64,000 bases of DNA from Sanghuangporus weigelae. Its lineage: Eukaryota; Basidiomycota; Agaricomycetes; Hymenochaetales; Hymenochaetaceae. The stretch spans positions 1,054,001 to 1,118,000 of the forward strand of contig CP137325.1 in assembly GCA_033182465.1 (NCBI GenBank). Reading direction: 5' to 3'. The notes beneath the pieces are model-generated. The model made no database searches. It worked only from the letters and a program-made list of their open reading frames with translations, and had not been told where the DNA came from. Below are positions 14,498 to 61,300 of the stretch, in pieces. Each line of letters begins with the position of its first letter. Within the stretch, counting starts at the first letter, position 1. A program made the position numbers and the translations under genes.

Positions 14498-14701
14498 TCT
14501 CAGTGCACTCCTCTCGTCTCTGTTAGCCCCTTTTGCTCTCTATCGCCTTCGCCGAAGACCGTGTGCCGACACAAGACGCCGCCCCTGTTTAGGGAATAAC
14601 AGGGGCACGTGCTCACTCGCCACTGCGCAAGTGATCGGCAGAGCTATCCCCCGTCCTGGGAATCGGCAGCGCTATCGCCCTCTTGACAATCGGCGACACC
14701 A

Positions 14702-14706
14702 TCGCC
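14702..14706. repeat. Target-site duplication, left copy
   Basis: TCGCC directly before the LTR; matched by TCGCC directly after the other LTR at 26997-27001. Because the target is a minisatellite containing TCGCC in each unit, chance agreement is somewhat likelier than usual. Confidence 0.8.
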
Positions 14707-16218
14707 TGTTAGGGAGTAGGCCCGGGGTTACACCGGTTTGATCCTTTTGCCTAAGCAGCGGTGTGTTGTGCAGAGGTGATCTTATCTACCCACGTCTGGC
14801 TGTACCACGCGGTCCCTTACTAGCCTTCCTAGTCGCGGTCCGAGTTATGGATGCTTTCAGATACGAGGTAATAGTAAAGCAGATTGGGATTTCCAAGAGG
14901 CGTGATAGTACAAAGCACACAGTAATAGCTCGCTGTAGGGCAAGCTTTACACCAGTGTGTTAAGAGGATCGAAAGATGGGGAAATGAGGGCCTAATCCTA
15001 CAACTATTTATGCTCCCAGATATTCCATTTTCCGTCCTATTTCTTACTCATCCTGTCTCCACTTTACTCCACTTTCCTCCACCATTACATCTGTTCCTTT
15101 GTCATCCTGCTGCGCTTCGCTCCACTTTGCTCCAATCTTTGTAAGGTCGTCTCCACTATGACAGAATTCTTTGGAGTTGCTGACTGAGACAATAGAGGTG
15201 GTGCTCCGATATGGAATGCTCCACTGTCAGTACTCCATAACGATGTCATTGCCGTCATTGAGTGGCATCTTTGCTCTTGGAGCGATGTAGGCTGCTCGGT
15301 ATGTGATTCTTCGGAATTCATCTCGAGGTCCAGCGAGGGTAAGCATAACTCGCACGTCAGTGTTAAGATGTCGGGTCGGTGTAGAGTATGGTCCAAGGCA
15401 TATCATGAACTGCATAAGCTCTGCTGGTGGGTTCTGCTGGGTTCTGGTGACTAGCCATGCTTTGCCTTCGTATCGTATATCGCGAATGTAGCACCATATC
15501 CTTCGTTGTATAAGGAGTTGTAATTGCTTGGTTTCCAGGTTCGCATCTCTCGGTAAATAAAGGTTTGCCTGTATCGTAGATGCTGGACATGGTGTGTGCA
15601 ACTCCGGTCTATACCATCCAATCATTCTCCAAGTTATCGGGTTCGCAGTTCGAGGGGTCCGAGTTGTGATCGTGAGTTCCTCTCGTTTCTTGGGTACTAT
15701 TGGGCTTGGTGGATTGGAATGCATTGTATCCTGAAGGTGTCGCTCGGTTTCGATGTGACAGTCACGCGTACCAACCGTTGCCGTGCATACTAAGTAGTAT
15801 ACTTCATAAAGGACCATGTAAACTCGTGCACAGACTTGACAGTGCTGAAATGCCAGTGAGGTCTCCATAAACCTTATTAGCCTTTAGCCTTTTAGCGTTT
15901 AGGCTTTAGTAGTTGTGCTTCTGGACTTCTAAGAAGTTTGATCGCTTCTTTTGATCGAGGTCGCTCTGGTTGCTTGGTCGGCGGCGTTAGAGTGGTAGTC
16001 CGCGGTAATAGGCGGTCGGCGGTGTTAGCTGTTAGCGGGATTACGTATCCGCTTCGGTGCTTCTAGCGCTCGGGTGGTAACGGGTTACTGTTGCCTAGGC
16101 CGCTCGATTGCTTGGGCCTTTGATAGCTGGCTTGGTTACCGGTCGCGTTTGGAAAGCTGATCGTGTAGATCTGTTGATCGTGTCGATCCTGATGCGAGTT
16201 TTTGAGCGGATCCTTTCA
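14707..16218 (-). repeat. 3' LTR of the 12.3-kb gypsy element
   Basis: 1512 bp; begins TGTTAGGGAG and ends CGGATCCTTTCA on the plus strand. It reads as identical to 25485-26996 wherever I compared, and the embedded 213-aa translations agree exactly, pointing to a recent insertion. Confidence 0.95.
15227..15868 (-). CDS. ORF inside the 3' LTR, 213 aa, unknown
   Basis: In element sense. No recognised domain. Cys and His residues cluster near the start (QHCQVCARVY), then a basic/Thr-rich segment (ELTITTRTPRTANPITW), then a compact-looking region with RRIWCYIRDIRYEGKAWLV and a C-terminus ending GNDIVMEY. A second possible start is MVLYEVYY, 18 codons on. The diverged solo LTR keeps the frame open over 196 codons (44560-45150) with about 15 amino-acid changes and no stop. 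Confidence 0.5.
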   Translation of the reverse strand: METSLAFQHCQVCARVYMVLYEVYYLVCTATVGTRDCHIETERHLQDTMHSNPPSPIVPKKREELTITTRTPRTANPITWRMIGWYRPELHTPCPASTIQANLYLPRDANLETKQLQLLIQRRIWCYIRDIRYEGKAWLVTRTQQNPPAELMQFMICLGPYSTPTRHLNTDVRVMLTLAGPRDEFRRITYRAAYIAPRAKMPLNDGNDIVMEY

Positions 16219-16234
16219 CTACACCCCCCCTAAG
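16219..16234 (-). other. Polypurine tract
   Basis: On the minus strand a run of seven G followed by TGTAG abuts the 3' LTR, the expected place and composition for plus-strand DNA priming. Confidence 0.75.
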
Positions 16235-16342
16235 ATGAACTTTCGGAGAAATGTTCATCCTAATCCGTGAGAAAGCTCGGATAAAGGGTCGCCTAGTGAT
16301 GGTTGATTTTTGCTATCAAACCATCATCATCTCTGCTCCAAA

Positions 16343-16658
16343 ATGTCGAAAGTCGCCGCTGCTGTTACTGTTTTTGTCGCTATTGTCGCGATTTTCGGCA
16401 TAAATCATTGGATTTTGGAGCGTAAGAGGCGTGCTCAGGTAAGTGATGCATGCTCTGTGCCGTTTCGAGTTGTTAATCATCCTCTAGGAGGCTGACTTCG
16501 AAATGCAATCGTTCCAGCGCGATGTTACTACTGTCGCGCTTCGAGTTCACCTCGCGCTCGGTTATGACGTTGAGGTTATCGATCCAGTCGTCGAAAATGC
16601 AGGTATTGCTTCGCAGGAACGTCGTGAAAAGGGTGTCTGGGAAGACATTGACTTGTAA
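16343..16658 (+). CDS. Antisense spliced small membrane protein in gypsy element
   Basis: Opposite to the retrotransposon genes, between the PPT and ORF X. Exon 1 is 16343-16438 and exon 2 is 16488-16658, joined in phase 0 across a 49-nt intron with strong signals (CAG|GTAAGT and CTCTAG|GAG). The predicted 88-aa protein has one N-terminal transmembrane segment (AAAVTVFVAIVAIFGINHWI), then a basic RKRRAQ and a soluble acidic tail ending GVWEDIDL. No family recognised. Reading-frame continuity across a clean intron favours a real gene, possibly a captured host gene, but there is no homology evidence. Confidence 0.5.
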
Positions 16659-17197
16659 AGGGTGGTGGGAAGGGATATGAATATGAAATGTGCATCATGT
16701 AAAGAATATGACGCAATTGAAAGTGATAAGAAAGAAATCATAAAGTCGTTAATGAATAAGTTTTATACCAATTTGGGAGTGAAGTTCCAGGTGTTTACCT
16801 ACGGCTCTTCAACCCCCAAATGGAGTTTTTCGAAGAAAGAGTGTAATTGGAGTGCCTTTCAGCGTGAAGGCACATCCTAGCATGATGCAAGGGAGTGACT
16901 TCACGTAAACTTTTGGCTTCTCCGTTGCATAGAGGATAATAAAAGGTAGGCATAATCTGCTAATTCGGAGCCGGCACAATAAAACAATATACAAAATGTC
17001 TAGGCCCTTGTAGGTTCTTTGACACTTCTGCATAGTGCTTCATTTGTGCTGGTTGGCCGAATAAGCGTGAAATAAAGAGGTGCATAAAGCATAATTTGGT
17101 CGGATGTGACCATAAATATCATAAGGTAAGAATGAAATGCATAATTGACCATGTCGGGTCACGATATGGGAAAGGGGTTGCATAAAAGAAGAGTTGT
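16659..17197. other. Non-coding spacer in the gypsy element
   Basis: About 540 bp, A-rich on the plus strand (ATAAAG-like motifs repeated at 16735, 17070, 17085, 17180). No supported gene. Confidence 0.5.
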
Positions 17198-18274
17198 TTA
17201 CAAATCTTCGGATTCTTCAGCCTCAGGTGTAGTCTGGGCCGAGTTCGCTGGGGTATATAGTTCCCTGCTTTCACCTTCTTCACTTGACTCTGTATCGTCG
17301 GAGTGTACGTACATGTCCTCCTGTTCCGACATAGTAAGCATCTCGTCCGGCTGGTAGAGTTCGTTCGGGTACTGGTAGACTGAGATCATCAGATCTTCCA
17401 GCAAGGGGTGTCGTGTAGCCTGTAGTTTTTCTCTGGCTTCTTCCTCTCGGTTGTTGAGTTCCATAAGGTAATGAGGGTCGTAGTTAACCTCTTTGCCTTC
17501 GACTACGTGGTGCTCGATGTTGTCGAGTGGTACCTCGTCCGTAGTAGAGTTCCTCGCTTCAATAACCGTTCGGTATCTCGTTCCTTCGTAATACTTCGTC
17601 ATGTTGAGTACCGTCATGAACTGCATGGTGTGGGATGCATAGAAGCCCGTCTGGTCGGCTATGTATATAATGTACTTCATCGCATCGATGCTCATCGGAT
17701 GATAGTGACTCCATCGCATCATTCGGTTAAGAATTGCGGTAGTCATGTCTCGTCGGTAGGCGCAAATTTGAATTGCCGAATGATAGATGCCCATGATGTT
17801 CTTGTATGTCGTTTCGTGCCTAAAGTCGATCTTGCCTCGATGTAATGCTTGTGTTTCGAGTTCGATCGCGTAGGTTAGAAATGCATCATCATTGAGTCGG
17901 CGTAATGCTGCGTCTCGAGGGTTACTGAGTTTGAATAACCACTCGTCTGAGTGATTCGCCATCATAAGGTGGGGTATTTCGTCTCGGTTGTGGTGGATTG
18001 CGTTCCACTTGTCAAATAGATCATCGAAGTACTTCCCTGGGCATAGGGGTACAATCTCATCTTCGTAGTTCTCTTCGTTGAATCGGTTGCACAGCTGTGG
18101 CCATTGATAACGTTCGGTCGGTGGCCTGAGTGTAAATGTCCATTCTGGTGCATCTTCTGGTTGACAGAATGCATGTAGCTCGTCGAAAATAGGCATAGCT
18201 GAGTAGTGGTTCGTCTGCAGTGAAGTAGAGCTGTTGAGATTCGAGTTGTTGTTCCTTAGCTCGAAGTTCTCCAT
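17198..18274 (-). CDS. ORF X downstream of pol, 358 aa, unknown
   Basis: Uninterrupted frame about 175 bp after the pol stop and in another frame than pol. It occupies the place where env would be, but I see no signal peptide, transmembrane segment or cysteine pattern. N-terminus polar (Asn/Ser-rich), a second start at MPIFDELHAF, a central helical region rich in H, Y and M, and a strongly acidic C-terminal ~60 residues (DDTESSEEGE, EAEESEDL). An acidic-tailed soluble protein, perhaps nucleic-acid or chaperone-like, but this is guesswork. Confidence 0.55.
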   Translation of the reverse strand: MENFELRNNNSNLNSSTSLQTNHYSAMPIFDELHAFCQPEDAPEWTFTLRPPTERYQWPQLCNRFNEENYEDEIVPLCPGKYFDDLFDKWNAIHHNRDEIPHLMMANHSDEWLFKLSNPRDAALRRLNDDAFLTYAIELETQALHRGKIDFRHETTYKNIMGIYHSAIQICAYRRDMTTAILNRMMRWSHYHPMSIDAMKYIIYIADQTGFYASHTMQFMTVLNMTKYYEGTRYRTVIEARNSTTDEVPLDNIEHHVVEGKEVNYDPHYLMELNNREEEAREKLQATRHPLLEDLMISVYQYPNELYQPDEMLTMSEQEDMYVHSDDTESSEEGESRELYTPANSAQTTPEAEESEDL

Positions 18275-18449
18275 GTTTTATACCATCTTGTTGGTATGTC
18301 GGCGATGTCTTGCCTAATTCTTCTATCTCTGCTCTCGCTTTGGTGTGCCACATTGATGTCATCGCTTGGTAAGGTCATTGGGGACCTTACTCATCGTCTC
18401 TATTGTGGATCCATAAGCGGCTCCATCGGGTGGAGTGCATGTGATGCAA

Positions 18450-20855
18450 CTATTGCCTCATTCGTTTTCGTGCGGCGATCCATTGGTTAAGGTTCGGTGG
18501 CTGGATTGCCTGAGGATACTTTTTATGGAATGCTTCGATCATTTGATAGGAGTTCTTGAGGTTGTCAAGTGGCTCCCATGTTCGCTCCTGGTATCCTTTC
18601 CATTGGATAAGGTATTGGACCTTGCTCCGATGACGTCTTGTGTTATGAATCGTCTCCACTTCGTACTCTGCTTCTCCCTCCACTTCAATAGGTGGTGGTT
18701 CATCCAAAGTGGGTCTTCCAGGGTATTCCTTTCGTTTGTAAGGCCTGAGAAGACTCGCATGAAACACTGGGTGGATCGGAAGGGTTTCGGGTAAGCGTAA
18801 TCTGAATGACACTTGTCCGACTGCCTTCTCGACTTTATAAGGCCCTGCCCATTTCATTGCAAGTTTCTTCGTTGGTTCCAATCGACTGAGATTCCTCATG
18901 TCTAGTAACACTTCGTCTCCTGGCTTGTACTCTGGCAGTTTGCCTCGATGCAGGTCTGCATAAAGCTTCATTGCCTCATTCGCTTGCCTAATCGAATTAT
19001 AGGCTTCTTGCTGTACTTGTCGAAGCTCCTCTAGGTGATTTATTGCTTCTGGGACGTTTGAATCACCGGTCTCCGCAACGTCCAGGTGAGGATGCCATCC
19101 ATACAGTGTATAGAATGGTGACTGATGTGTAGTACTGTGCTTCCTGTTGTTGTAGGCGAATTCTGCTATATCGATGTACTCTGCCCAATCTGTTTGTCGG
19201 TAGGACACATAGCAGCGTAAGTACTGTTCAAGCTCTTGATTTAGTCGCTCGGTTTGACCATCGGTTTGTGGATGATACGCTGTACTAGTTTTCCAATCGA
19301 CATCGATGAGTCTGCAGAACTCCTTGAGGAATTGCGCGGTGAAGTTGCTACCTCGGTCGGAGATTACTCGTTTAGGGGCCCCGTAGTATTTGAAGACATG
19401 TTGGCGGAACAAACGTGCCAACTGCTTAGCATTGGGTATTCCTTGGCAAGGAATGAACTTCCCCATTTTAGTGAGTTTGTCCACTATAACGAGTATCGCG
19501 CTGTAGCCTTCATTGCTGACTGGTAAGTCGGTAATCAGGTCACAGGTTATGGTTTCCCATGGTTGATGTGGTGCCTCCAACGGTTGGAGCGGCGGATTTC
19601 GAAACTGTCGAATCGGTTTTGCACGCTGACATATGTCGCAGGTTGCGGTATATGCTCGGATCATTTCTTCCATCTTCGGCCAATAGTATGATCGCTTTAC
19701 AAGCTCTATGGTCTTTTCTGCTCCTGGGTGGCCTGCAAGTTTGTGATCATGGCGCCTTCGGATTAGCAACGCTCGTAGGTTGGCGGACGGCGGGATATAT
19801 AATGCATTGGTTACGTAGTGCAAGCCGTTCCTGTAACTGTAGCCGTTGCTCTGCTTGATCGCCTGAATCTCCTTCTTAGCCTCCTCGGTATTGTAGTTCC
19901 TCTTGATCGTTCGGATAATAGGATCAGAGATAGTGACCATTTCGGTTTCTAGCTTGTATAGACCGTTGATCTCCGTTCGTCGCAATGTTTGTTGCTTGAT
20001 CGTATCAGGAGGTAACAAGGTAACTCCTAAGTTGTCCTTGTCCTCTGGCATATAGTCGGATCGTCGTGATAGCTCGTCAGCTTGGTTCTTCTTGCCTGGC
20101 CAATGGAGAATCTTGAAGTTATATCGTGATAACTCTAGTGCCCATCTCGCTTGACGTCTCGATAGATTCTGAGCTGTCATGAAGTATCGGAGATTTGCAT
20201 GATCGCTTCGGATTGTTACTGGTTCTTTGGTTCCCTCCAATAGGTGTCTCCAATGCTTGAGTGCTTCCATGATTGCTAGCATCTCTTTGTCATGCGTCGG
20301 ATAGTTTCGTTGGGTGTTCGTTAGAGTTTTCGACATGAAACCTAAAGGTCTCAGTTCTCCTTGGTTGTCTTCTTGTTGTAAGACTGCACCAATCGCTACA
20401 TCGGATGCGTCGGTTTCCAATGTATATGGTTTGTCTGGCTTTGGCATTGCCAATGCGACTTCCGTTTCGAATGCCTTCTTGATACTTTCGAATGCCTTAT
20501 CTTGTGCCTCTGCCCATATGAACTTGCGATCCTTTTTGATAAGGTCGCCAATAGGTGCGAATGTATCGGCATAGTTCCTGATGAATCTTCGGTAGAAGTT
20601 ACAAAATCCTTGGAACTTTCGAACTTGTCGTTTCGTCTTTGGCACTGGCCATTCGTGAATAGCTTTGAGCTTATAAGGATCCATCTGGATGCCTTTCGTT
20701 CCTACTACAAATCCCAAGTAGTCGAGTTGGGTTTGGAGGAAGTGACATTTCTCGATTTTGAGGTAAATGTCGAGCTCTCGGCATTTCTGTAGAATTGCCC
20801 TGAGGAGTTTCCAATGTTCCTCTTCAGTTTGTGCTTGACCAATAAGGTCGTCCAA
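18450..20855 (-). pseudogene. pol: pol, downstream part (RT end, RNase H, integrase, chromodomain)
   Basis: About 800 codons continuing the pol frame after an in-frame TAG. Order: RT palm end (LDDLIGQAQ, then LDYLGFVV); RNase H with TLETDASDVAIGAVLQQ; integrase zinc finger (HKLAGHPG...CDICQRAK); catalytic core with CDLITD, ISDRGSNF and the Glu in TDGQTERLNQELEQ; GPY/F module (KWAGPYKVEK); and a chromodomain near the end (YEVETIHNTRRHR, then YLIQWKGY, TWEPLDNL). All three integrase acidic residues are present, so only the stop codon breaks the protein. Chromodomains direct integration to particular chromatin in this family. Confidence 0.9.
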
Positions 20856-20858
20856 CTA
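20856..20858 (-). other. In-frame TAG at the RT active-site tyrosine
   Basis: On the minus strand AAC TAG TTG GAC GAC: the codon before L-D-D of the YLDD motif is TAG instead of a Tyr codon. A single base substitution (TAC or TAT to TAG) explains it. Both flanking frames are fully open. Confidence 0.9.
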
Positions 20859-23032
20859 GTTGAGTGCTTCTTCTGTCCTGAGCCAATATTCGAAGTTGTC
20901 ATTCATGAATCGTTGGAATACTGCAGGTGAGTTCTTCATTCCAAACATCATGACCTTTGGCTTGTAGACTGCATTGCCAACTCGGAATGCTGCCTTCCAC
21001 TCGTCTCCTTCTCGGATTCGCAGGTTGTTGTAACCTGATCGCATGTCAAGTGTAAAGAAGAACTTTCCTTTCTCCAGTTTCTCTGGGAGAACACTCATGA
21101 TCGGTATCGGGTATGGATCTGATACTGTCGTGTCGTTGATGTCTCGGTAATCGGTTACTGCTCGTGCTCCTCCGTCTTTCTTTCCTACAAAGAAGACTGG
21201 TGCTGCTACCGGACATGGTTCATGTGGTTGCACCTTTTCAATCCATCCTTTGTCAAGTAACTCTTTGACATAAGCATCGAGTGCTGCCTGCTCTTCTCGT
21301 GTGAGCTTGATAATAGGCCTTGGTTTCGGTAATGGTACTCCTTCTTTGAGGTTAATCGCCATATCCCATTTCGTATGCTTGGGTAACCTTCTTGACTTGT
21401 CAGGATCAAAGACATCTGCGTAGTCTTCTATTTCCTTTGGTAGGAGTTTTCGCCAATCTCGTTTCTGTGTTCCTAGTAATCCTTCTGCAGCTGCCTTTTG
21501 TTGAGAATACTGCTGGGATACTGAACTCGCTTTGTTCAGAGGCTGTGAGACTTGGTTCTGCTGCCTTGGTGACCAATTTCGATTGATGTCTAGCTCTAGC
21601 TTTGCAGCGAGCTCTTCCTTTCTGGTAAGGGTAGCTGGTTGGTTGGTCGTCCTAAGACTTTCAATGTCTTCTGGCTCTATATCGTGCATAGGAGTGTCTT
21701 CTGTTGTCTCCTGCTCGTCTTGCATCTCGATATCGCTTTCGTTGTCTGCCCATCTTGTACGCTTCGGTGTGGGACTAGCTCCTCGCATTAACGATGCCGT
21801 TCTCGGTCGTATAATGCCTGCCACTGGCTTCTCTGGGTACCGTGTCTTTCGTGGTCGTATCCTATACTTCATGCCCGGGTTTTCTTCTGGTGATGGCCAG
21901 AGTTCTTCATCTTCCGGCATGTTTTGCCTCAGTGGGTGTATCTTCTGTGGTGGTTGTTTCTTCCAACGTTTCGGAGAGTCGTTTATTTCCTCCTGTTCGT
22001 CTAGGCTATGCTTGTCTGTTACATCTTGTGTTTCACCTTCGGATGTCTGGTACAGTTGCCGTGCTGGGATCGTCCGTCTCGGTATGTGCCTTGGTCGTCG
22101 TTGCACTATACTCGTTCCTTGTGGTGCCTGTTTCTTCCATCGCTTGGGAGTGTAGTTTATTTCCTCCTCATCTCGATGATGCTTGTTTGCCGTTTCCTGT
22201 TGTGGCTGTTTCGTTGCAGAGTCTGGTATATTTTCCGTGCTCGGACTCTTCACTTCTGGCGTCTGTTTTGCCTGTTCCAGTCTTGGTGTTGCTGGTCTGG
22301 TTTCCGGCTTCGCTTGTGGCTTCGTTTCGTGAGAGTGTCCGTTGTTGTCTCTCCTTGGCGCAAATATTATTCCTGGTGCTCCAGAGTGTCGATAGTTGTC
22401 TCTGTCCTGAGCCTGTTGCTTCGTGTTACGCCTAGGTCTTGTCTTGTCAGGTTTGCCTTTCGTTTGCCGTTTCCGTTTGCGCTTCCTGTGCCTTCGCTTC
22501 TTGGTAGCTCGTATGACGTTGAGCTCGAATGGTATCGAATTACCATTCCGATTCCATACTTGATTCTTCCAATCAATTTCGGGATTGACTTTGGCCAAAT
22601 AGTCAATTCCTAGGATCACTTGATCCTGTCCTGTGGTTGCTACTGCCAACGTTTGTGGCTGCGGTTTAGGTCCATCAAAAATTAATGTGTAGACCTCGTG
22701 CGTGATTGCTCCTCCTTGGTTGGGACTTCCATCCGCATTATTCAAAGGTCGAGGGTGATCAAGCCTCTTTTTGAATAGGCTGTAGTGTCGTACCAAGTTG
22801 GGGTGTATCGTGCTGCATGTAGCTCCGGAATCGATTAACGCTTTGACTGCTAGGGTCTTTGTTCCAACCTTCACTCGAATAGGTAATCGGGGATGCAATG
22901 CTTGTATTGGCAATCGCTTATTGTACATCGCTTCACTGGGGTTGAACCCAGGAGGTTTGAAACACTGGTTGTTGAAACCTTTCTCGTCACCCTTGTCACA
23001 CTCACATCGCGCAGTCTCGTTCGATGGAGGTC

Positions 23033-24121
23033 TTAATCTTTTCCCTGTTGCTCTTTACTTGCTAGGGATTTGCGAATGTTGTTTCGGTATTCTTCGTCAT
23101 GCTTGCAAGTCCATCCTGCTGATTCGTCGCCTTTAGCCCATGCTACATGATCGTAGTGGACTGGCCTTCGGCAGTGTGGATCGGGACATGTTTCCTTGAA
23201 ATCGATTGTTCGTGTTGTCATCGTCCTCCGTTTTACACCATTAGTCTTCTTCGGCCGCTTCGAGGAAGAACCCTTTTGCTTCCTTGGTGCCTTGCACTCC
23301 TTTGCGTAATGTCCTGACTTTTCACAGTTGTAGCATTTGCCTCCCTTCTTCGGCAAGCCTCGGAGTGCATCTACATCCATGGCGTCTGGATCTCGTTTCG
23401 TTGTTTGTACTGGTGGTCGGAAAGATGACTGTCCGTTCGATTTGAATCTCGGGGTGTATGTTTGACTGCCCATGAGCCTTTGCCTGGCGTCAGAGTTTGC
23501 TAGGTTGCTTGTCCATTCCATCCATGCATCGAGGTCGTTCTTCTCGAAAGCGTCGGGTTGTACAGATTCGACTCGTCGTTTGACCCACATGTCTAGTCCT
23601 TTGACATAGATGTACTTGAGCATCTGCTTATCCATCGTGTCTGGTGCTCGTGCTTTGAGTCGTCGGAATTCGTCGTTGTACGCCCTAATGCTTGCTCCTT
23701 TCTGCTGGATGCATAGTAGTTGGAATAGGGCTTCCTGTTCTCCAATGATCGGATGTCCTGCTCGGATCCTCATCCAGTTCAGCATGTCCTTGAGTGATGC
23801 GAACATTCCATTTGTCGCAGCGATAATCGCAGGTACTGGTTTCAGTTTCCCATTGGCATCGAATGATGTTAGGGTATTCTTCTCTGCAAACCAATCGTAG
23901 CTGTCGCCTTCTAGTGCCGCAAATAGGCTCTTTGCGATCTCCTCCTCATCCTTGACTCCATGCTGTGCCAGCTTCGAGATACATCGACTAATCCACAGAT
24001 CAATATCTTCGCTTCGCTTGCCATAGTACTTCGGAAGCTTGATGCTGTGTTTAGAGAGTTGTGTCTGAAGAGTCTGTAGTTGCTGCTCCAGTGCTTGCAC
24101 CTTCTGGTCGGTTGTCGACAT
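23033..24121 (-). CDS. gag: gag (capsid and nucleocapsid), 362 aa
   Basis: Structural protein of the virus-like particle. A short N-terminal coiled coil (QKVQALEQQLQTLQTQLS) precedes a gypsy capsid fold (IKLPKYYGKRSEDIDLWI ... FAALEGDSYDWFAE ... IRAYNDEFRRLKARAP). One CCHC knuckle CYNCEKSGHYAKEC lies near residue 265. A second C/H-rich cluster (CPDPHCRRPVHYDH ... WTCKHDEEY) at the C-terminus is unusual. The last codons contain the proposed slippery heptamer and the stop is TAA at 23033. The ATG lies inside the end of ORF B, overlapping 71 nt in another frame. Confidence 0.9.
   Translation of the reverse strand: MSTTDQKVQALEQQLQTLQTQLSKHSIKLPKYYGKRSEDIDLWISRCISKLAQHGVKDEEEIAKSLFAALEGDSYDWFAEKNTLTSFDANGKLKPVPAIIAATNGMFASLKDMLNWMRIRAGHPIIGEQEALFQLLCIQQKGASIRAYNDEFRRLKARAPDTMDKQMLKYIYVKGLDMWVKRRVESVQPDAFEKNDLDAWMEWTSNLANSDARQRLMGSQTYTPRFKSNGQSSFRPPVQTTKRDPDAMDVDALRGLPKKGGKCYNCEKSGHYAKECKAPRKQKGSSSKRPKKTNGVKRRTMTTRTIDFKETCPDPHCRRPVHYDHVAWAKGDESAGWTCKHDEEYRNNIRKSLASKEQQGKD
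23039..23045 (-). promoter_or_regulatory. Putative -1 ribosomal frameshift site GGGAAAA
   Basis: On the coding strand the gag frame reads CAG GGA AAA GAT TAA. G_GGA_AAA fits the X_XXY_YYZ rule, lies one codon before the gag stop, and the -1 frame is open from here through the whole pol region to the TAG at 20856. No other continuous way to join gag and pol is visible. Confidence 0.7.
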
Positions 24122-25085
24122 GATCGTAAGTGCTTATGGGCACTGCTGGTGGTGAATAGGATGGTGGTGGTGGATTCTCTGGCGCTTGGGTTGCTACTGA
24201 ACCACTTGCTGGTACTGCAGGTACTGTTGGTACTTGGATGATAACCGTTCGAGGTGGGGTTCTGAGTAAGAATGGCCTTCGTGATGCTTCTTCGTCTGAG
24301 GACACTGATTCGTCAGAACTCTGTTCCTGTTGGGCTCTCTCTCTTGGTAGAAAGTATTCCCAGCGTTGTGCTGCCTGAGCTACTTCTCGAATTCGTTGAG
24401 CGTGTTCGAGTATGTTCCTTGAGGTAGTTTCGGTTGTCTGTACCGATATGAGTATAGCTGCGTAGGTGCGTTGACTCGACTCGATTGTTTGTCCTAGTTG
24501 GAGTAGGGCTTCTCGCAGGTTATGGATGTCTTGAACAATCCTTGGTTGATCTAGAGCTGTCCTGTTAAGCTCTCCGACTCTCGTCTCGATCGTCTGTAGT
24601 TGTTGTTCCTGAGCAGTAATCCTGTTTCGGATAGCGTTGAGCTCTCGGTCAAGTACTCCGTTTCCGTCTATGACCCGTTGATTGAGTGCTCCTGCTGCTC
24701 GATCCAATTCCAGAGTATATCTCTCTAGAGCTGCTACCTGTGCTCCAATTCTTCGAGTAGTTGTTTCGAGTGCTTCGAATCGATCTCCTACTGCTGTCGC
24801 GTATGCTCCGGTTGGTAGACTGTTTGACTGCCCCGTGTTTGCAGTTCGTTCTTCCAGTCTTTCAACCCTTTCTTGTAGCCTTCTGATCACTGGTGGATAC
24901 AATATGCTGTGGTTCGTTGTCGCGTATAGTATGTCGTGATCGCTTTCCAGACTACGTAGCCTGTTGGTGATATGTTGAACTCGTTCGTCGAGGGATCTAG
25001 GTGTGAACCTCGTTTGATTATCGTTCGCCCGTTCGTTCGTTCGATGACCGTTACTTCTGTTGTTGGCGTTTCCTGATCGGTTCAT
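24051..25085 (-). CDS. ORF B, 344-aa coiled-coil protein upstream of gag
   Basis: Begins at an ATGA that overlaps the stop of ORF A and ends inside gag. Asn/Arg-rich N-terminus, then several heptad-repeat helices (RLQERVERLEER, ALETTTRRIGAQVAALERY, RITAQEQQLQTIETRV) over residues ~30-230, a basic/acidic Ser linker (SSDESVSSDEEASRR), and a Pro-rich tail with PPPPSYSPP, which resembles PPxY late-domain context. Perhaps an accessory or extended matrix-like Gag; this is inference. Confidence 0.65.
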   Translation of the reverse strand: MNRSGNANNRSNGHRTNERANDNQTRFTPRSLDERVQHITNRLRSLESDHDILYATTNHSILYPPVIRRLQERVERLEERTANTGQSNSLPTGAYATAVGDRFEALETTTRRIGAQVAALERYTLELDRAAGALNQRVIDGNGVLDRELNAIRNRITAQEQQLQTIETRVGELNRTALDQPRIVQDIHNLREALLQLGQTIESSQRTYAAILISVQTTETTSRNILEHAQRIREVAQAAQRWEYFLPRERAQQEQSSDESVSSDEEASRRPFLLRTPPRTVIIQVPTVPAVPASGSVATQAPENPPPPSYSPPAVPISTYDHVDNRPEGASTGAATTDSSDTTL

Positions 25086-25423
25086 GAACTTCGTTTCTCG
25101 CCTGATGCTTCAGGGTTATTGTTCCTTGGTGCTGTTAACCAAGTAGTTCCTTTCTCGTCGAATGTAGCAATAGTGGAAGGGACTGCTGCTACTTTCGTGG
25201 TTGTTGTTTGCGTGCTCCCAACTGCAGGGCTACCAGATGCCTTTGCTATTAGGTACACTTCGTCGTTGTAGGGGTTATGATAGTAGATATGTGATTTAAG
25301 TGAATCGGGTTTGTCGTTCTCCAGGATGTGCACTTGTCCTGAGGATTCGATATGGGTACTAGTCTCGAAACTAGTGACGTCGATAGGGACTTGAGGTCGA
25401 CGGTCCTCGCCTCGATAAAACAC
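25082..25423 (-). CDS. ORF A, 113 aa, first ORF of the gypsy element
   Basis: Lies ~60 bp after the 5' LTR. Polar, no recognised domain (MFYRGEDRRPQVPIDV ... EASGEKRSS). Its TGA overlaps the ATG of ORF B (ATGA), the arrangement used for termination-reinitiation. Confidence 0.5.
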   Translation of the reverse strand: MFYRGEDRRPQVPIDVTSFETSTHIESSGQVHILENDKPDSLKSHIYYHNPYNDEVYLIAKASGSPAVGSTQTTTTKVAAVPSTIATFDEKGTTWLTAPRNNNPEASGEKRSS

Positions 25424-25467
25424 TAGCCAAGAACCTTGCCCGTGAGAGGTGGTGATAAAACTAGCGA

Positions 25468-25484
25468 GTGATCTTTCGATCCAA
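25468..25484 (-). other. Primer-binding site
   Basis: Directly downstream of the 5' LTR, minus strand, TTGGATCGAAAGATCA. The TGG start fits pairing with the CCA end of a tRNA; the tRNA was not identified. Confidence 0.55.
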
Positions 25485-26996
25485 TGTTAGGGAGTAGGCC
25501 CGGGGTTACACCGGTTTGATCCTTTTGCCTAAGCAGCGGTGTGTTGTGCAGAGGTGATCTTATCTACCCACGTCTGGCTGTACCACGCGGTCCCTTACTA
25601 GCCTTCCTAGTCGCGGTCCGAGTTATGGATGCTTTCAGATACGAGGTAATAGTAAAGCAGATTGGGATTTCCAAGAGGCGTGATAGTACAAAGCACACAG
25701 TAATAGCTCGCTGTAGGGCAAGCTTTACACCAGTGTGTTAAGAGGATCGAAAGATGGGGAAATGAGGGCCTAATCCTACAACTATTTATGCTCCCAGATA
25801 TTCCATTTTCCGTCCTATTTCTTACTCATCCTGTCTCCACTTTACTCCACTTTCCTCCACCATTACATCTGTTCCTTTGTCATCCTGCTGCGCTTCGCTC
25901 CACTTTGCTCCAATCTTTGTAAGGTCGTCTCCACTATGACAGAATTCTTTGGAGTTGCTGACTGAGACAATAGAGGTGGTGCTCCGATATGGAATGCTCC
26001 ACTGTCAGTACTCCATAACGATGTCATTGCCGTCATTGAGTGGCATCTTTGCTCTTGGAGCGATGTAGGCTGCTCGGTATGTGATTCTTCGGAATTCATC
26101 TCGAGGTCCAGCGAGGGTAAGCATAACTCGCACGTCAGTGTTAAGATGTCGGGTCGGTGTAGAGTATGGTCCAAGGCATATCATGAACTGCATAAGCTCT
26201 GCTGGTGGGTTCTGCTGGGTTCTGGTGACTAGCCATGCTTTGCCTTCGTATCGTATATCGCGAATGTAGCACCATATCCTTCGTTGTATAAGGAGTTGTA
26301 ATTGCTTGGTTTCCAGGTTCGCATCTCTCGGTAAATAAAGGTTTGCCTGTATCGTAGATGCTGGACATGGTGTGTGCAACTCCGGTCTATACCATCCAAT
26401 CATTCTCCAAGTTATCGGGTTCGCAGTTCGAGGGGTCCGAGTTGTGATCGTGAGTTCCTCTCGTTTCTTGGGTACTATTGGGCTTGGTGGATTGGAATGC
26501 ATTGTATCCTGAAGGTGTCGCTCGGTTTCGATGTGACAGTCACGCGTACCAACCGTTGCCGTGCATACTAAGTAGTATACTTCATAAAGGACCATGTAAA
26601 CTCGTGCACAGACTTGACAGTGCTGAAATGCCAGTGAGGTCTCCATAAACCTTATTAGCCTTTAGCCTTTTAGCGTTTAGGCTTTAGTAGTTGTGCTTCT
26701 GGACTTCTAAGAAGTTTGATCGCTTCTTTTGATCGAGGTCGCTCTGGTTGCTTGGTCGGCGGCGTTAGAGTGGTAGTCCGCGGTAATAGGCGGTCGGCGG
26801 TGTTAGCTGTTAGCGGGATTACGTATCCGCTTCGGTGCTTCTAGCGCTCGGGTGGTAACGGGTTACTGTTGCCTAGGCCGCTCGATTGCTTGGGCCTTTG
26901 ATAGCTGGCTTGGTTACCGGTCGCGTTTGGAAAGCTGATCGTGTAGATCTGTTGATCGTGTCGATCCTGATGCGAGTTTTTGAGCGGATCCTTTCA
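25485..26996 (-). repeat. 5' LTR of the 12.3-kb gypsy element
   Basis: 1512 bp, same ends and length as 14707-16218, in element orientation the upstream LTR. Promoter signals were not pinned down. Confidence 0.95.
26005..26646 (-). CDS. ORF inside the 5' LTR, 213 aa (identical copy)
   Basis: Translation identical to the ORF at 15227-15868. In this copy it precedes gag in the sense direction, so a transcript starting in the upstream part of the LTR could express it. Confidence 0.5.
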   Translation of the reverse strand: METSLAFQHCQVCARVYMVLYEVYYLVCTATVGTRDCHIETERHLQDTMHSNPPSPIVPKKREELTITTRTPRTANPITWRMIGWYRPELHTPCPASTIQANLYLPRDANLETKQLQLLIQRRIWCYIRDIRYEGKAWLVTRTQQNPPAELMQFMICLGPYSTPTRHLNTDVRVMLTLAGPRDEFRRITYRAAYIAPRAKMPLNDGNDIVMEY

Positions 26997-27235
26997 TCGC
27001 CCTCTTGACAATCGGTGACACCGTCGCTCTCCTGGTAATCGGCGACACCGCCGCTCTCCTGGGAATCGACAGCACCATCGCCCTCTTGACAATCGGCGAC
27101 ACCGTCGCTCTCCTGGTAACCGGCGACACCGTCGCTCTCCTGGTAATCGGCGACACCGTCGCTCTCCTGGTAATCGGCGGCACCGTCGCTCTACTAGTAA
27201 TTGCCGCCGCTCGCAGGACTCGACAGCGCCGTCGC
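26997..27235. repeat. 27-bp minisatellite, about 8 units
   Basis: Head-to-tail units of consensus TCGCTCTCCTGGTAATCGGC plus GACACCG, with variants (CCCTCTTGACAATCGG). The unit is 27 bp, so no frame shifts between units: the plus strand reads a 9-residue repeat GDTVALLVI and the minus strand is also open (26914-27183). Partial units lie left of the gypsy element at 14640-14706, so the element split this array. Confidence 0.9.
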
Positions 27236-35502: not shown

Positions 35503-35830
35503 AAAAACTCATCATTTCCCCGTAGCCTCCCAGGCTCCAGGAAAAATTCTTACAGGCCAGATTCATGCATGTAAATTCATTTTGGATATAATAGACTAGG
35601 TTTGTGTACTAGCTAAGGCCTCAGCATCCACTGGTGAGCTGGGCTGAACAAGTGATTCTGGTTGTATGCATCATTTTAGACAGCATCTTCCCAGCTCACC
35701 AGTGGATGCTGAGGCCTTAGCTAGTACACAAACCTAGTCTATTATATCCAAAATGAATTTACATGCATGAATCTGGCCTGTAAGAATTTTTCCTGGAGCC
35801 TGGGAGGCTAGGGGGAAATGATGAGTTTTG
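35503..35830. mobile_element. Foldback element with near-perfect 141-bp arms
   Basis: 35503-35643 and 35690-35830 are reverse complements with only one or two differences, around a ~46-bp loop. It encodes nothing. Such an intact hairpin implies a recent origin or gene conversion between arms. The sequence to its right (35831-36000) resembles the middle of the 760-bp MITEs at 51141 and 59863. Confidence 0.9.
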
Positions 35831-44040: not shown

Positions 44041-45550
44041 TGTTAGGGAGTAGGCCCGGGGTTACACCGGTTTGATCCTTTTACCTAAGCAACGGTGTGT
44101 TGTGCAGAGGTGATCTTATCTACCCACGTCTGGCTTTACCATGCGGTCCCTTACTAGCCTTCCTAGTCGCGGTCCGAGTTATGGATGCTTTCAGATACGA
44201 GATGATAGTAAAGCAGATTGGGATTTCCAAGAGGCGTGATAGTACAAAGCACACAGTAATAGCTCGCTGTAGGGCAAGCTTTACACCAGTGTGTTAAGAG
44301 GATCGAAAGATGGGGAAATGAGGGCCTAATCCTACAGCTATTTATGCTCCCAGATATTCCATTTTCTGTCGTATTTCTTACTCATCCTGTCTCCACTTTA
44401 CTCCACTTTTCTCCACCATTACTCTGTTCCTTTGTCATCCTTCTGCGCTTCGCTCCACTCTGCTCCGATCTTTGTAAGGTCGTCTCCACTATGATAGGTT
44501 TCTGTGGAGTTGCTGACTAAGACAATAGAGGTGGTGTTCTGATATGGAATGCTCCACTGTCAGTACTCCATAATGATGTCATTGCCATCATTGAGTGGCA
44601 TCTTTGCTCTTGGAGCGATGTAGGCTGCTCGGTATGTGATTCTTCGGAATTCATCTCGAGGTCCATTGAGTGTAAGCATAACTCGCACATTGGTGTTGAG
44701 ATGTCGGGTCAGTGTAGAGTATGGTCCAAGGCATATCATGAACTGCATAAGCTCTGCTGGCAGGTTCTGCTGGGTTCTGGTGACTAGCCATGCTTTGCCT
44801 TCATATCGTATGTCTCGAATGTAATGCCATATCCTTTGTTGTGTAAGGAGTTGTAACTGCTTGGTCTCCAGGTTCGCATCTCTCGGTAAATAAAGGTTTG
44901 CCTGTATTGTGGATGCTGGACATGGTATGTGCAACTCTGGTCTATACCATCCAATCATTCTCCAGGTTATCGGGTTCGCAGTTCGAGGGGTTCGAGTTGT
45001 GATCGTGAGTTCCTCTCGTTTCTTGGGTACTACTGGGTTTGGTAGATTGGAATACATTGTATCTTGAAGGTGTCGCTCGGTTTCCATGTGACAGTCACGT
45101 GTACCCACTGTTGCCGTGCATACTATGTAGTATACTTCATAAAGGACCATGTAAACTCATGCACAGACTTGACAGTGCTGAATGCCAGTAAGGTCTCCAT
45201 AAACCTTATTAGCCTTTAGCCTTTTAGTGTTTAGGCTTTAGTAGTTGTGCTTCTGGACTTCTAAGAAGTTTGATCGCTTCTTTTGATCAAGGTCGCTCTG
45301 GTTGCTTGGTCGGTGGCGTTAGAGTGGTAGTCTGTGGTAATAGGCAGTCGGCGGTGTTAGCTGTTAGCGGGATTACATATCTGCTTCAGTGCTTCTAGCG
45401 CTCGGGTGATAATGGGTTACTGTTGCCTAGGCCGCTCAATCGCTTGGGCCTGTGATAGCTGGCTTGGTTACTGGTCGTGTTTGGAAAGCTGATTGTGTAG
45501 ATCTGTTGATCGCATCAATCCTGATGCGAGATTTTGAGCGGATCCTTTCA
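44041..45550 (-). mobile_element. Solo LTR of the 12.3-kb gypsy family, diverged
   Basis: 1510 bp with the same termini (TGTTAGGGAG...CCTTTCA). Flanks differ (ACCAC left, GATAG right), so no target duplication. In the last ~350 bp I counted about 22 substitutions against the intact LTRs, roughly two thirds of them CpG to TpG or CpA. Confidence 0.9.
44560..45150 (-). CDS. LTR ORF, diverged copy, 196 aa
   Basis: Corresponds to codons 18-213 of the LTR ORF at 15227-15868. About 15 residues differ, with no stop or frameshift inside; upstream codons are lost by a 1-nt deletion before MVLYEVYY. Whether it is expressed is unknown. Confidence 0.45.
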   Translation of the reverse strand: MVLYEVYYIVCTATVGTRDCHMETERHLQDTMYSNLPNPVVPKKREELTITTRTPRTANPITWRMIGWYRPELHIPCPASTIQANLYLPRDANLETKQLQLLTQQRIWHYIRDIRYEGKAWLVTRTQQNLPAELMQFMICLGPYSTLTRHLNTNVRVMLTLNGPRDEFRRITYRAAYIAPRAKMPLNDGNDIIMEY

Positions 45551-50881: not shown

Positions 50882-51140
50882 TCATTCTTCGTCGTTCTTC
50901 ACCACCGAAATACGGACTACAGGCATACGTTGGTACGGATCTTCCAAGTGTTTCTTATCTTCCTTTGTAAGCTTGATCCACACCGCATCTATGATATCCG
51001 CCAGCATCCCTATCCATAGTAACTTCACGTTCACGTACCGATGAGATCCATAAGATTCTGAAGTCTCGTCATTTCAATGATTGGCGCTGCGAGCCATTGT
51101 ATTTCCTTTCTTCTTCGCGAGTTCTTCAACCCGGCAGTTA

Positions 51141-51900
51141 CTGCCTTTTTCATATGTATTGTCACTCGCGACTTCTGTGATTTTTGTCACACAGAACACC
51201 TCAAAATATAAAAATCCCCATATCTCACTCAATTCTTGACCGTCTTGCATGATCTAAGTTGTTAAATTCATAGTTTTAAGATTTATTTCAAACTACAACA
51301 AGGATGAAGAGAAATTAGCAAATAATGAGTGAGATATGTCATAAAAGGCCGATTTTAGACACTTTCTTCATGTGCAGTTTTTCCTGCCCTCAGACTGGGT
51401 GCTACAACAGCCTAGACTGTACCAGAGTGGTGCTATTGGCATAATATAAATTTACAGACATCAGTTTTCCTAAGAATAAATTTATTTTGAGGTCTAGGAG
51501 CCCTTGAGAAAAGGTAGGTTTGAGCTTAGCTCAGACATATATCAAACCAGCAGATACAACACAAAATAGAGCTCAAAGTCAGTCTGTAAATATAAAATAA
51601 AATAAGTATATCATTTTGGACTTGCTTGTAGGACTGTAGAAGCAGGGATGAGGGCAGGAAAAACTGCACATGCAATATATGTCTAAAATTGGTCTTTTAT
51701 GACATATCTCACTCATTCTTTGCTCATTTCTCTTTGTCCTTGTTGGAGTTTGAAATGGATCTTAAAACTATGGGTCTAGAAACTTAGATCATGCAAAACG
51801 GTCAAGAATTGAGTGAGATATGGGGATTTTTATATTTTGAGGTGTTCTGTGTGACAAAAATCACAGAAGTCGCGAGTGACAATACATATGAAAAAGGCAG
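51141..51900. mobile_element. 760-bp foldback MITE, copy A
   Basis: Arms of ~250 bp (starting CTGCCTTTTTCATATGTATT) are near reverse complements around a ~250-bp core; flanked by TA on both sides. No coding capacity. Copy B at 59863-60622 has the same length, with its core in the opposite orientation. TA flanks suggest Tc1/mariner-type mobilisation. Confidence 0.9.
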
Positions 51901-52325
51901 TAATTGCTACCTTCAAACTTGTCATAAACATTGATATATCTGATTCAAAACGCGGATCAGTATCAGACGACTGTGTTAAATGGAGACTTGAAAGGCTGGT
52001 CGCGCATCTGTCTCTGCTCTCTTGCTTTGTTCTTACAGAGTGACAGAGGTCGCGTAAGGAAATCTCGTACAAGCGGAGACCAGGGAATATAAGCAACGCC
52101 GAGGTGTTTCGATAGTGGCATCTTTTCATGCTCTTCTTCCCTGTAAGTCAGGGTGTAATAATTCTGCATCGAGATGAACGGAGTAAGGTTGTAATTGATC
52201 GCATAGGCTGAGAGCATAATCGGTGTCAGTGTCATTATTTGTAGGTCGTTAAAAATAGGAGTACTGACTCTGCATAGCATGAAGCTAGTCTCGACAAATG
52301 ATGTTAGTAAATATTGGACTGTATC

Positions 52326-59840: not shown

Positions 59841-59862
59841 TGCATGTAAAGCTCTTCTATTA

Positions 59863-60622
59863 CTGCCTTTTTCATATGTATTGTCACTCGCGACTTCTGT
59901 GATTTTTGTCACACAGAACACCTCAAAATATAAAAATCACCATATCTCACTCAATTCTTGACTGTTCTGCATGATCTAAGTTTCGAAATTCATAGTTTTA
60001 AAATATGTTTCAAACTCTAACAAGGATGAAGAGAAATGAGCAAAGAATGAGTGAGATATGTCGTAAAAGGTCGATTTTAGACACATCTTTCATGTGCAGT
60101 TTTTCCTGCCCTCATCCCTGCTTCTACAGTCCTATAAGCAAGTCCAAAATGATATGATTATTTTATTTTAAGTTTACAGGCTGACTTTGAGCTCTATTCT
60201 GTGTTGTATCTGCTGGTTTGATGCATGTCTGGGCTGAGCTCAAACCTACCTTTTCTCAAGGACCCCCAGACCTCAAAATAAATTTATTCTTAGGAAATCT
60301 GATATCTTCAAATTCATATTATACCAATAGCATCACTTTGGTGCAGTCTAGGTTGTTGTAGCACCCAGTCTGAGGGCAGGAAAAACTGCACATGAAAGAT
60401 GTGTCTAAAATCGACCTTTTACGACATATCTCACTCATTCTTTGCTCATTTCTCTTCATCCTTGTTAGAGTTTGAAACATATTTTAAAACTATGAATTTC
60501 GAAACTTAGATCATGCAGAACAGTCAAGAATTGAGTGAGATATGGTGATTTTTATATTTTGAGGTGTTCTGTGTGACAAAAATCACAGAAGTCGTGAGTG
60601 ACAATACATATGAAAAAGGCAG
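59863..60622. mobile_element. 760-bp foldback MITE, copy B
   Basis: Same length and termini as copy A (51141-51900), flanked by TA. Its two arms are closer to each other than those of copy A. Inserted in the N-terminal coding part of monooxygenase copy A. Confidence 0.9.
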
Positions 60623-61300
60623 TAATGTCCGTGGGAGGCGTTCTTGACGGACATAAAAACGTCTTCGCACGGTCGAATCGGAGATACTCCTGATGATGGT
60701 CAATAAAGCACTGTTATTTCCGCTGGAGCTTGAAGCTTACCCGTGCGACGCTCCGACAAGCACTGATAAGAGTAAGATGACTCGGAATTGCGTACTGCGG
60801 CTGCATCGCTCCTAGCACAAAACCGTATATATTCAATTGCTGGAAATGGCTCACTTTAATCGAACTGCATGCATTCGCACCGCGAGGATCATGTTTATGA
60901 AGTGAGAATTCCAATTCTATATTTCCAGAGCCGTGGGCACTAAAACGAGTAAGGAGTTTCAGACCCACCGCTGATCCTTGAGAGGAAGGAGCGATCCTCC
61001 CTAAATCTGGGCTCAAAGGACAACAAACGATATTTGCAGGGACAGAATCTGGTCAATGAGGAACTCGCGAAAGGGTTGACTATATCAACTCTCCTGTTCT
61101 TTCACGTTTATAAGTGTTCTTGTTCTTCTGAACTCCTTCGGTCCAACCATCAGGCAACGCTAATATCCCTATAATTGACTGGTAATATCATTATTATCGA
61201 TCAAGAACCCGCAGAACAGATTTGTCGCATTCACCGAGTCAGAGAAGTTGCGCCGGCCTTCAACATTATTTCTAATGACTAACTTCATCAAAGTATTCGC
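60623..61300. repeat. 5' flank of monooxygenase copy A, duplicated at 62690-63260
   Basis: 60720-61075 and 62690-63120 are diverged copies (GACAGAATCTG, GCACTGATAAG motifs), consistent with tandem duplication of the whole gene unit. No intact N-terminal exon was identified. Confidence 0.5.

What the first reader, a model, noticed from the sequence alone, without database searches (positions are those of the whole stretch)
14707..26996. A 12.3-kb fungal chromovirus with at least four extra genes
Seen: identical-looking 1.5-kb LTRs and target duplication around gag-pol plus ORF A, ORF B, ORF X, an LTR ORF and an antisense spliced gene. Known: chromodomain gypsy elements of fungi usually encode only gag-pol in 5-7 kb. 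Inference: this is a distinct lineage that has acquired accessory genes, comparable in logic to complex retroviruses. It is the best candidate here for an undescribed system.
Basis: partly seen in the sequence, partly recalled or inferred. Interest (0 to 1): 0.78.

Follow-up and report, generated by a model that had tools for sequence, protein, structure and literature searches.

The report
Mushroom retrotransposon with extra conserved genes
A recently multiplied jumping gene in or near the medicinal mushroom genus Sanghuangporus carries at least three extra protein genes that natural selection keeps intact, one of them inside its terminal repeats, which is unusual for this kind of fungal element.

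Summary
The element is real: two 1512-bp LTRs identical at every base, 5-bp target duplication TCGCC, and gag-pol with a chromodomain on the minus strand. The host genome holds about 105 near-full-length copies; protein relatives place it in or beside Sanghuangporus.

In 11 copies (10 colinear), ORF A, ORF X and the LTR ORF are under purifying selection: pN/pS 0.13, 0.03 and 0.09, against 0.03-0.12 for gag/pol and 1.5-7.7 out of frame. X and the LTR ORF recur in other Sanghuangporus species at 50-98% and 70-98% identity. The 88-codon antisense spliced gene is probable but unproven (p=0.055). The leader frame is not a gene. So: three firm extra genes plus one probable.

New here: a Tf1-type self-primer that places the LTR ORF in U3, and a nonsense codon in RT of this copy and three others.

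Extra ORFs, self-priming and a fungal antisense ORF (Boty brtn) have precedents; this combination did not appear in my literature searches. Functions remain unknown.

The parts
25485..26996 (-). 5' LTR in element orientation, 1512 bp
   Evidence: 1512/1512 identical to the other LTR
14707..16218 (-). 3' LTR in element orientation, 1512 bp
14702..14706 (.). target site duplication TCGCC, left copy
26997..27001 (.). target site duplication TCGCC, right copy
25782..25790 (-). TATA-like box CATAAATAG in the 5' LTR (LTR 1207-1215)
   Evidence: conserved in the three family-II LTRs aligned
25744..25755 (-). self-primer ATCTTTCGATCC (LTR 1242-1253), inferred 5' end of the RNA and U3/R boundary
   Evidence: exact 12-nt complement of the PBS; 10 of 20,000 shuffled LTRs have any such match; present in both LTRs of 10 of 10 fetched copies
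25471..25482 (-). primer binding site GGATCGAAAGAT, starting 2 nt downstream of the end of the 5' LTR
   Evidence: present in 10 of 10 fetched copies
24051..25085 (-). ORF A, 344 aa, coiled-coil-like and proline-rich with a PPSY motif; overlaps the gag start by 71 nt
   Evidence: pN/pS 0.13, 24 S:11 N; 107 near-full-length copies, 100 without a stop
23033..24121 (-). gag, 362 aa, CCHC zinc knuckle
23039..23045 (-). candidate -1 frameshift site GGGAAAA in the gag/pol overlap
   Evidence: present in 11 of 11 copies; downstream RNA fold not remarkable
20859..23054 (-). pol, first part: protease and N-terminal RT
20856..20858 (-). nonsense codon in RT just before LDD; shared with 3 other copies on contig C8
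18450..20855 (-). pol, second part: rest of RT, RNase H, integrase, chromodomain
17198..18196 (-). ORF X, 332 aa from the start shared with its relatives; acidic, no membrane span
   Evidence: pN/pS 0.03, 23 S:2 N; relatives in 4 Sanghuangporus species
16343..16438 (+). antisense gene, exon 1 (32 codons, predicted membrane helix)
   Evidence: open in 11 of 11 copies; hydrophobic in family II too
16439..16487 (+). antisense gene, predicted intron GTAAGT...CTCTAG
   Evidence: GT and AG kept in 11 of 11 copies and in family II
16488..16658 (+). antisense gene, exon 2 (56 codons plus stop)
16224..16231 (-). polypurine tract AGGGGGGG, 5 nt before the 3' LTR
16231..16262 (-). stem-loop just 5' of the polypurine tract
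   Evidence: z -2.81; the 125-column block is 93% identical to family II against 63-72% in the exons and intron beside it
15227..15868 (-). LTR ORF, 213 aa, 3' LTR copy, wholly in inferred U3
   Evidence: pN/pS 0.09; relatives 70-98% identical in 3 Sanghuangporus species
26005..26646 (-). LTR ORF, 5' LTR copy
   Evidence: identical LTR
25082..25486 (-). leader frame, 134 aa, no ATG; considered and rejected as a gene
   Evidence: 4 S:8 N, pN/pS 0.57

Best explanation
This is one of about 105 near-full-length copies of a very young chromodomain Ty3/Gypsy LTR retrotransposon family that belongs, as far as the data reach, to the mushroom genus Sanghuangporus or a close neighbour. Besides gag and pol the family carries at least three real protein genes: ORF A in front of gag, ORF X between pol and the 3' LTR, and a 213-aa gene in U3 of the LTR. 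A fourth, a small spliced membrane-protein gene on the opposite strand beside the 3' LTR, is probable. Shown by sequence: the architecture, the recurrence, and purifying selection on the three genes at the level seen for gag and pol. Inferred: RNA starts near LTR position 1240, its 5' end pairs with the primer site two bases downstream of the 5' LTR and primes its own reverse transcription as in Tf1; Pol is made by a -1 frameshift at GGGAAAA; the chromodomain steers integration. Most likely, but not shown, the extra proteins serve the intracellular cycle: A acts with Gag in particle assembly, X and the U3 protein help expression, RNA export or escape from silencing. This particular copy has a nonsense codon in RT and could not move unaided.
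For: Identical LTRs and TSD; domains. Copy numbers: X 106 of 111 matches near full length, 101 of those stop-free; A 107 of 114, 100 stop-free; gag 110 of 113 scored (141 candidates) are this family, 103 stop-free; LTR ORF: the 150 best of 430 candidates were scored, all open. Same gene order in 10 of 11 copies; TSD in 9 of 11, or 9 of 13 with two more flank pairs. pN/pS A 0.13, X 0.03, LTR ORF 0.09 beside gag 0.05, pol 0.12 and 0.03, with six out-of-frame controls at 1.5-7.7; binomial p 8e-8, 2e-14 and 6e-5. dN/dS against older copies and divergent family II: LTR ORF 0.12-0.25, X 0.09-0.17; A, older copies only, 0.15-0.34. Relatives found only in Sanghuangporus. Self-primer: 12-nt exact complement, identical in LTR II_a and in both LTRs of 10 of 10 fetched copies.
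Against: No transcript or protein evidence at all. ORF A has no relative in the protein database and no strongly diverged version in this genome, so its constraint rests on copies of one family. A, X and the LTR ORF reach no curated Pfam cut-off and have no PDB match by sequence; PHROGs gives A only weak coiled-coil-like matches. The structure models are too poor to use (mean pLDDT 39.8 and 50.1), so every proposed function is a guess. The antisense gene is not significant (5 S:5 N, p=0.055) and its frame is not clearly better than control frames against family II. The binomial tests treat variants as independent. Older LTR ORFs with stops exist (two on C9).
Confidence: 0.85

Rival explanations
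1. The ORFs are open only because the copies are young; they are by-products of a recent burst and not genes.
For: In the ten fetched copies A, X, gag, pol and the LTR ORF are 98-100% identical to the window's, and 8 of 10 equal-length LTR pairs, the window's included, have no difference.
Against: Variants among 11 copies are strongly synonymous in A, X and the LTR ORF but not in the leader frame. X and the LTR ORF stay in frame across species at 50-73% identity.
Confidence: 0.03
2. The extra ORFs are parts of other transposons or host genes nested in one ancestor and carried passively.
For: Fungal 'complex transposons' made by multiple insertions are described (PMC3248453, passages). X and the LTR of family II are more diverged from this family than its pol is (X dS about 2.2 and near saturation; LTR ORF 0.63-0.85; pol 0.34-0.52), so the modules may have different histories.
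Against: Passive cargo would not show pN/pS of 0.03-0.13. A and X matches in this genome are close copies of the window's or family II; no host-gene source was seen, though the surroundings of the short partial matches were not checked.
Confidence: 0.07
3. ORF A and X are further structural (gag- or env-like) proteins, and the element makes transmissible particles like a retrovirus.
For: A sits before gag, has coiled-coil-like stretches and a PPSY motif, which in retroviral Gag proteins is a budding motif (recalled); PPSY is kept in all 7 of the 9 fetched A pieces that cover it. X has the position of env.
Against: X has no hydrophobic segment (maximum 19-residue Kyte-Doolittle 0.42), so it is not env-like. 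X has no profile similarity to gag and A none by BLASTP. Only the antisense frame encodes a clear membrane helix.
Confidence: 0.08
4. The four RT-null copies on contig C8 show that broken copies are moved in trans by intact ones (a refinement of the main reading).
For: Two RT-null copies have different, clean TSDs: TCGCC in the window and GACGG at C8:412-424k.
Against: The other two lack TSDs and all four are on one contig, which fits ectopic recombination or gene conversion between neighbours as well.
Confidence: 0.5

Closest known systems
Fungal chromoviruses (chromodomain Ty3/Gypsy; basidiomycete clades such as MarY1, Laccy1/2, Tcn1, Tcn2)
   Same: gag-pol order, integrase then chromodomain; length within the reported 4.4 to >13 kb; a figure legend names an 'additional ORF' of unknown function (PMC2864245, section 5; figure not seen, so which element carries it is not known to me)
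   Different: three conserved extra genes plus a probable fourth, where most surveyed elements had one or two ORFs; clade not determined here
Tf1/Sushi and Tcn1 self-priming elements
   Same: [quoted passage not shown] for one spikemoss Tcn1-like element PMC2864245 found no sign of it)
   Different: 1.5-kb LTRs with a gene; two frames with a -1 shift and accessory genes, against one gag-pol ORF in Tf1 (Tf1 layout recalled)
Boty / BcGypsy1 of Botrytis cinerea with antisense gene brtn
   Same: fungal Gypsy element with an antisense ORF between pol and 3' LTR (PMC7264820, part 1 of 3; PMC8365987, passages)
   Different: a spliced 88-aa predicted membrane protein here; sequences of brtn were not compared
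Plant Retand/Grande (antisense ORFs) and Retrosat2/RIRE3/RIRE8 (ORF0 before gag-pol)
   Same: long pol-3'LTR region with antisense ORFs (PMC11963269, passages); ORF0 upstream of gag-pol that evolves faster than pol (PMC3485330, passages)
   Different: different hosts; no known domain in the antisense protein here
Complex retroviruses and MMTV (recalled: sag in U3, HBZ antisense), and Cer1 CERV of C. elegans
   Same: layout: LTR gene, antisense gene, accessory ORFs; CERV shows that an accessory protein of an LTR retrotransposon can serve genomic RNA export (PMC10309623, abstract)
   Different: no env-like protein; no splicing or regulation shown; sequences of these viruses were not compared one by one

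Membership tests
Ty3/Gypsy LTR retrotransposon (Metaviridae) | direct LTRs starting TG and ending CA, with short TSD | tested here: met
Ty3/Gypsy LTR retrotransposon (Metaviridae) | pol order PR-RT-RNH-INT, nearest solved relative Ty3 | tested here: met
   (second pol piece: 7q5b, Ty3 Gag-Pol, E 1.7e-96; protease match just below its Pfam cut-off)
Chromovirus | chromodomain at the integrase C-terminus | tested here: met
   PF00385 at residues 731-779 of the 801-aa frame, E 6e-10
Chromovirus | position in an RT/INT tree among named fungal clades | not tested
   no reference clade sequences were fetched
Tf1/Sushi-type self-priming elements | PBS complementary to the inferred RNA 5' end within the LTR | tested here: met
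   12 nt exact, about 33 nt after a TATA-like box, kept in LTR II_a; two older LTRs have one mismatch each
Tf1/Sushi-type self-priming elements | mapped transcript start and self-primed cDNA | not testable with these tools
   no RNA data
Complex retrovirus | env gene for a membrane glycoprotein | tested here: not met
   X has no membrane span; no env-like Pfam match among the seven frames scanned
Complex retrovirus | accessory genes expressed from spliced mRNAs | not testable with these tools
   no RNA data
Antisense-ORF elements such as Boty | conserved ORF antisense to gag-pol between pol and 3' LTR | tested here: inconclusive
   open and spliceable in 11 of 11 copies, but 5 S:5 N, p=0.055

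The most novel reading that the evidence does not exclude
A fungal retroelement lineage has independently evolved a retrovirus-like accessory set: a gene inside U3, an antisense spliced membrane-protein gene beside the 3' LTR, a pre-gag protein and a post-pol protein, all needed for its recent spread, with modules exchanged between subfamilies by recombination.
Probability: 0.35. Interest if true: 0.75.

Novelty: new variant of a known kind. Interest (0 to 1): 0.55.

Why it matters
It gives a clear fungal case in which accessory genes of an LTR retrotransposon are maintained by selection about as strongly as gag and pol, with about 100 young copies and several related species to compare. That makes it testable why some retroelements need genes beyond gag and pol: assembly, RNA export or counter-defence. 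A protein gene inside U3 is rare (recalled), and because solo LTRs carry it too it is more numerous than the element (430 candidate matches against 111 for X). The self-priming signal adds a basidiomycete candidate for Tf1-type priming.

Tried and rejected
Rejected: the leader frame 25082-25486 as a gene (no ATG, pN/pS 0.57). A shared origin of X with gag or with the LTR ORF, or of A with gag: no similarity in the three pairs compared. A strong frameshift-stimulating RNA fold after GGGAAAA: none (z 0.43). Structure-based naming of X and the LTR ORF: models of mean pLDDT 39.8 and 50.1; Foldseek on the LTR ORF model gave nothing at E<=0.001 in either library; X was not searched by fold because its model was worse. 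Relatives in IMG/VR contigs for X, A and the second pol piece: none. Family searches: Pfam for A, X, the LTR ORF and the antisense product, PDB for A, X and the LTR ORF, PHROGs for A, X and the LTR ORF: nothing above a curated cut-off or meaningful.

Not done: a clade tree of RT; DNA-level dN/dS between species, since only proteins of other species were reachable; tRNA-primer alternatives were not searched; A and the antisense gene were not folded.

Papers: PMC2864245 section 5 and passages; PMC7264820 part 1 of 3 of the whole text; PMC3248453, PMC3485330, PMC11963269, PMC6317226, PMC8365987 passages only; PMC10309623 abstract and outline. Others were seen in search listings only. The statement that this combination did not appear in print rests on the listings, in a library that lacks most subscription papers.
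Full report
WHAT IS THERE. The element occupies 14707-26996 on the minus strand. Its LTRs (14707-16218, 25485-26996) agree at 1512 of 1512 positions and are flanked by TCGCC on both sides. Pfam finds a zinc knuckle in gag, then RT, RNase H, integrase and a chromodomain above their curated cut-offs; Ty3-like capsid (E 1.1e-4) and protease (E 6.7e-6) matches fall below theirs. The nearest solved relative of the second pol piece is Ty3 Gag-Pol (7q5b, E 1.7e-96). Gag and pol overlap with a -1 relation, and a canonical slippery heptamer GGGAAAA lies at 23039-23045 in 11 of 11 copies examined. The RNA downstream folds no better than shuffles.

THIS COPY IS BROKEN. Pol is interrupted by TAG at 20856-20858, immediately before the LDD of the RT catalytic box. 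In the genome, 92 of the 150 scored chromodomain matches (171 candidates) lie in open pol frames of 1534-1535 aa, and four in the 801-aa frame, all on contig C8 (my count). Two of the four have different clean TSDs (window TCGCC; C8:412-424k GACGG). The other two also carry a stop there but have no TSD. Movement in trans and gene conversion both fit.

HOST AND COPY NUMBER. The window lies in a 33.87-Mb genome of 13 contigs whose name is withheld. The only protein relatives found for ORF X and the LTR ORF come from Sanghuangporus: X in S. weigelae (98%), S. sanghuang (69%), S. vaninii (64%) and S. baumii (54%, plus two shorter models at 72% over 40% of the query and 50%); the LTR ORF in S. weigelae (98%), S. 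baumii (72 and 73%) and S. vaninii (70%). So the host is in or beside that genus. In S. weigelae the LTR ORF (ACEPAI_3465) and X (ACEPAI_3467) bear neighbouring gene numbers and both clusters name a 164,453-base contig, which fits the same element layout. Of 111 X matches 106 are near full length and 101 of those stop-free. Of 114 A matches 107 are near full length and 100 stop-free. Of 113 gag matches scored (141 candidates) 110 belong to this family and 103 of those are stop-free; the other three are 28% identical. For the LTR ORF the best 150 of 430 candidates were scored and all 150 are open; a search with an S. baumii relative also showed two older ones with stops. About 105 copies of 12.3 kb would be near 1.3 Mb, 3.8% of the genome (inference).

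Short pieces of older copies were fetched instead. Ten of 11 copies, the window included, are colinear LTR-leader-A-gag-pol-X-tail-LTR; the one at C5:601-614k is rearranged. TSDs are present in 9 of 11. Eight of the ten LTR pairs of equal length show no difference, two show one and two, and one pair of unequal length was left out. Pairwise pN/pS over the distinct alleles: LTR ORF 0.09, A 0.13, gag 0.05, pol 0.12 and 0.03, X 0.03, leader frame 0.57. A, X and the LTR ORF read in their two wrong frames give 1.5-7.7 (matches covering less than 90% of a gene were dropped). Distinct variants, synonymous to nonsynonymous: X 23:2, A 24:11, LTR ORF 10:3, gag 21:5, pol 37:17 and 37:4, leader 4:8; binomial p for the first three 2e-14, 8e-8 and 6e-5, and still 4e-9, 5e-5 and 0.0025 if only 65% of changes are expected to be nonsynonymous. 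Older copies agree: X 0.09-0.17 in 7 pieces, A 0.15-0.34 in 9 pieces. Gag and pol in the same copies serve as positive controls, the wrong frames as negative ones.

FAMILY II. A degraded element at C6:1285000-1304999 has 49-50% identical X, LTR ORFs 66-75% identical and pol 78-89% identical, all with stops; no A or gag was found in it, and pol follows the LTR directly. dN/dS against it is 0.17 for X, 0.17-0.23 for its three LTR ORFs and 0.08-0.30 for pol; two more such LTR ORFs on C9 give 0.24-0.25. Synonymous distance differs by module: pol 0.34-0.52, LTR ORF 0.63-0.85, X about 2.2 and near saturation. This suggests recombination between subfamilies; composition differences were not excluded.

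SELF-PRIMING. The 12 nt GGATCGAAAGAT begin two bases downstream of the end of the 5' LTR. Their exact complement ATCTTTCGATCC lies at LTR 1242-1253, about 33 nt after a TATA-like CATAAATAG. Ten of 20,000 shuffled LTRs contain any 12-nt complement of the 24-nt region, and in the whole window the 12-mer occurs only at the PBS and in three LTRs. Both sites are present in 10 of 10 fetched copies, the primer in both LTRs. Family-II LTR II_a keeps it exactly, while II_b and II_c have one change each. LTR 1201-1512 is 88-92% identical between families, while upstream blocks are 41-85%. This is the arrangement reported for Tf1/Sushi and many Tcn1 elements. It places the U3/R boundary near 1240, so the LTR ORF (351-992) is wholly in U3.

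THE ANTISENSE GENE. On the plus strand 16343-16438 and 16488-16658 encode 88 aa with a strongly hydrophobic N-terminus, separated by a 49-nt GT-AG intron. Frame and splice sites hold in 11 of 11 copies. Family II keeps donor, acceptor and a hydrophobic helix with different residues, and has one internal stop. Variants are 5:5 (p=0.055), and against family II the frame is not clearly better than control frames. I call it probable.

WHAT THE PROTEINS DO. A is coiled-coil-like and proline-rich, with PPSY kept in all 7 fetched pieces that cover it. X is acidic with no hydrophobic segment. The LTR protein keeps its length (212-213 aa) and an HCQxCAR motif in all five sequences aligned. None has a family match above a curated cut-off. 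My working mechanism, with A helping Gag assembly and X and the U3 protein helping expression, RNA export or counter-silencing, is inference by analogy; Cer1 CERV is a published case of an accessory protein needed for genomic RNA export (abstract).

NOVELTY. Length, additional ORFs, antisense ORFs, pre-gag ORFs and self-priming are each known. The set of three selected accessory genes including one in U3 of a fungal chromovirus did not appear in the listings of my paper searches. I therefore file it as a new variant of a known kind.

Noticed in passing
G000 contig C8, ORF A at 340288, 356958, 371748, 392101, 421831, 1078054, 1139004: The seven copies that share the top ORF A score with the window's all lie on contig C8, 6.6% of the genome. 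Of five whose flanks were read, three have different TSDs and two have none. Local transposition, chromosome ancestry or gene conversion could explain it.
   Followed up: partly
window 16231-16262: A stable stem-loop directly 5' of the polypurine tract, in a block 93% identical to family II while the exons and intron beside it are 63-72%.
   Followed up: partly
G000:C6:1183045, 1193824, 1204603: ORF A copies spaced exactly 10,779 bases, as expected for tandem elements sharing LTRs.
   Followed up: no
window 44041-45550: A solo LTR of the same family, 94.5% identical, without a matching 5-bp duplication.
   Followed up: no
window 14654-14705 and 26997-27219: The element sits in an array of 27-bp tandem repeats that is open in several frames.
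   Followed up: no
window 51134-51907, 59859-60626, 35504-35829: Long inverted repeats, one with 256-bp arms 99.6% identical.
   Followed up: no
G000:C13:463678, C1:1727871, C1:3835758: Other gag frames, 28% identical, in the same genome, two of them some 6 kb before chromodomains of another family; whether that family has extra genes was not examined.
   Followed up: no
L009-L010 (G000:C6:1285000-1304999): Family-II element in which pol follows the LTR directly with no A or gag found, suggesting a deletion or recombinant.
   Followed up: partly
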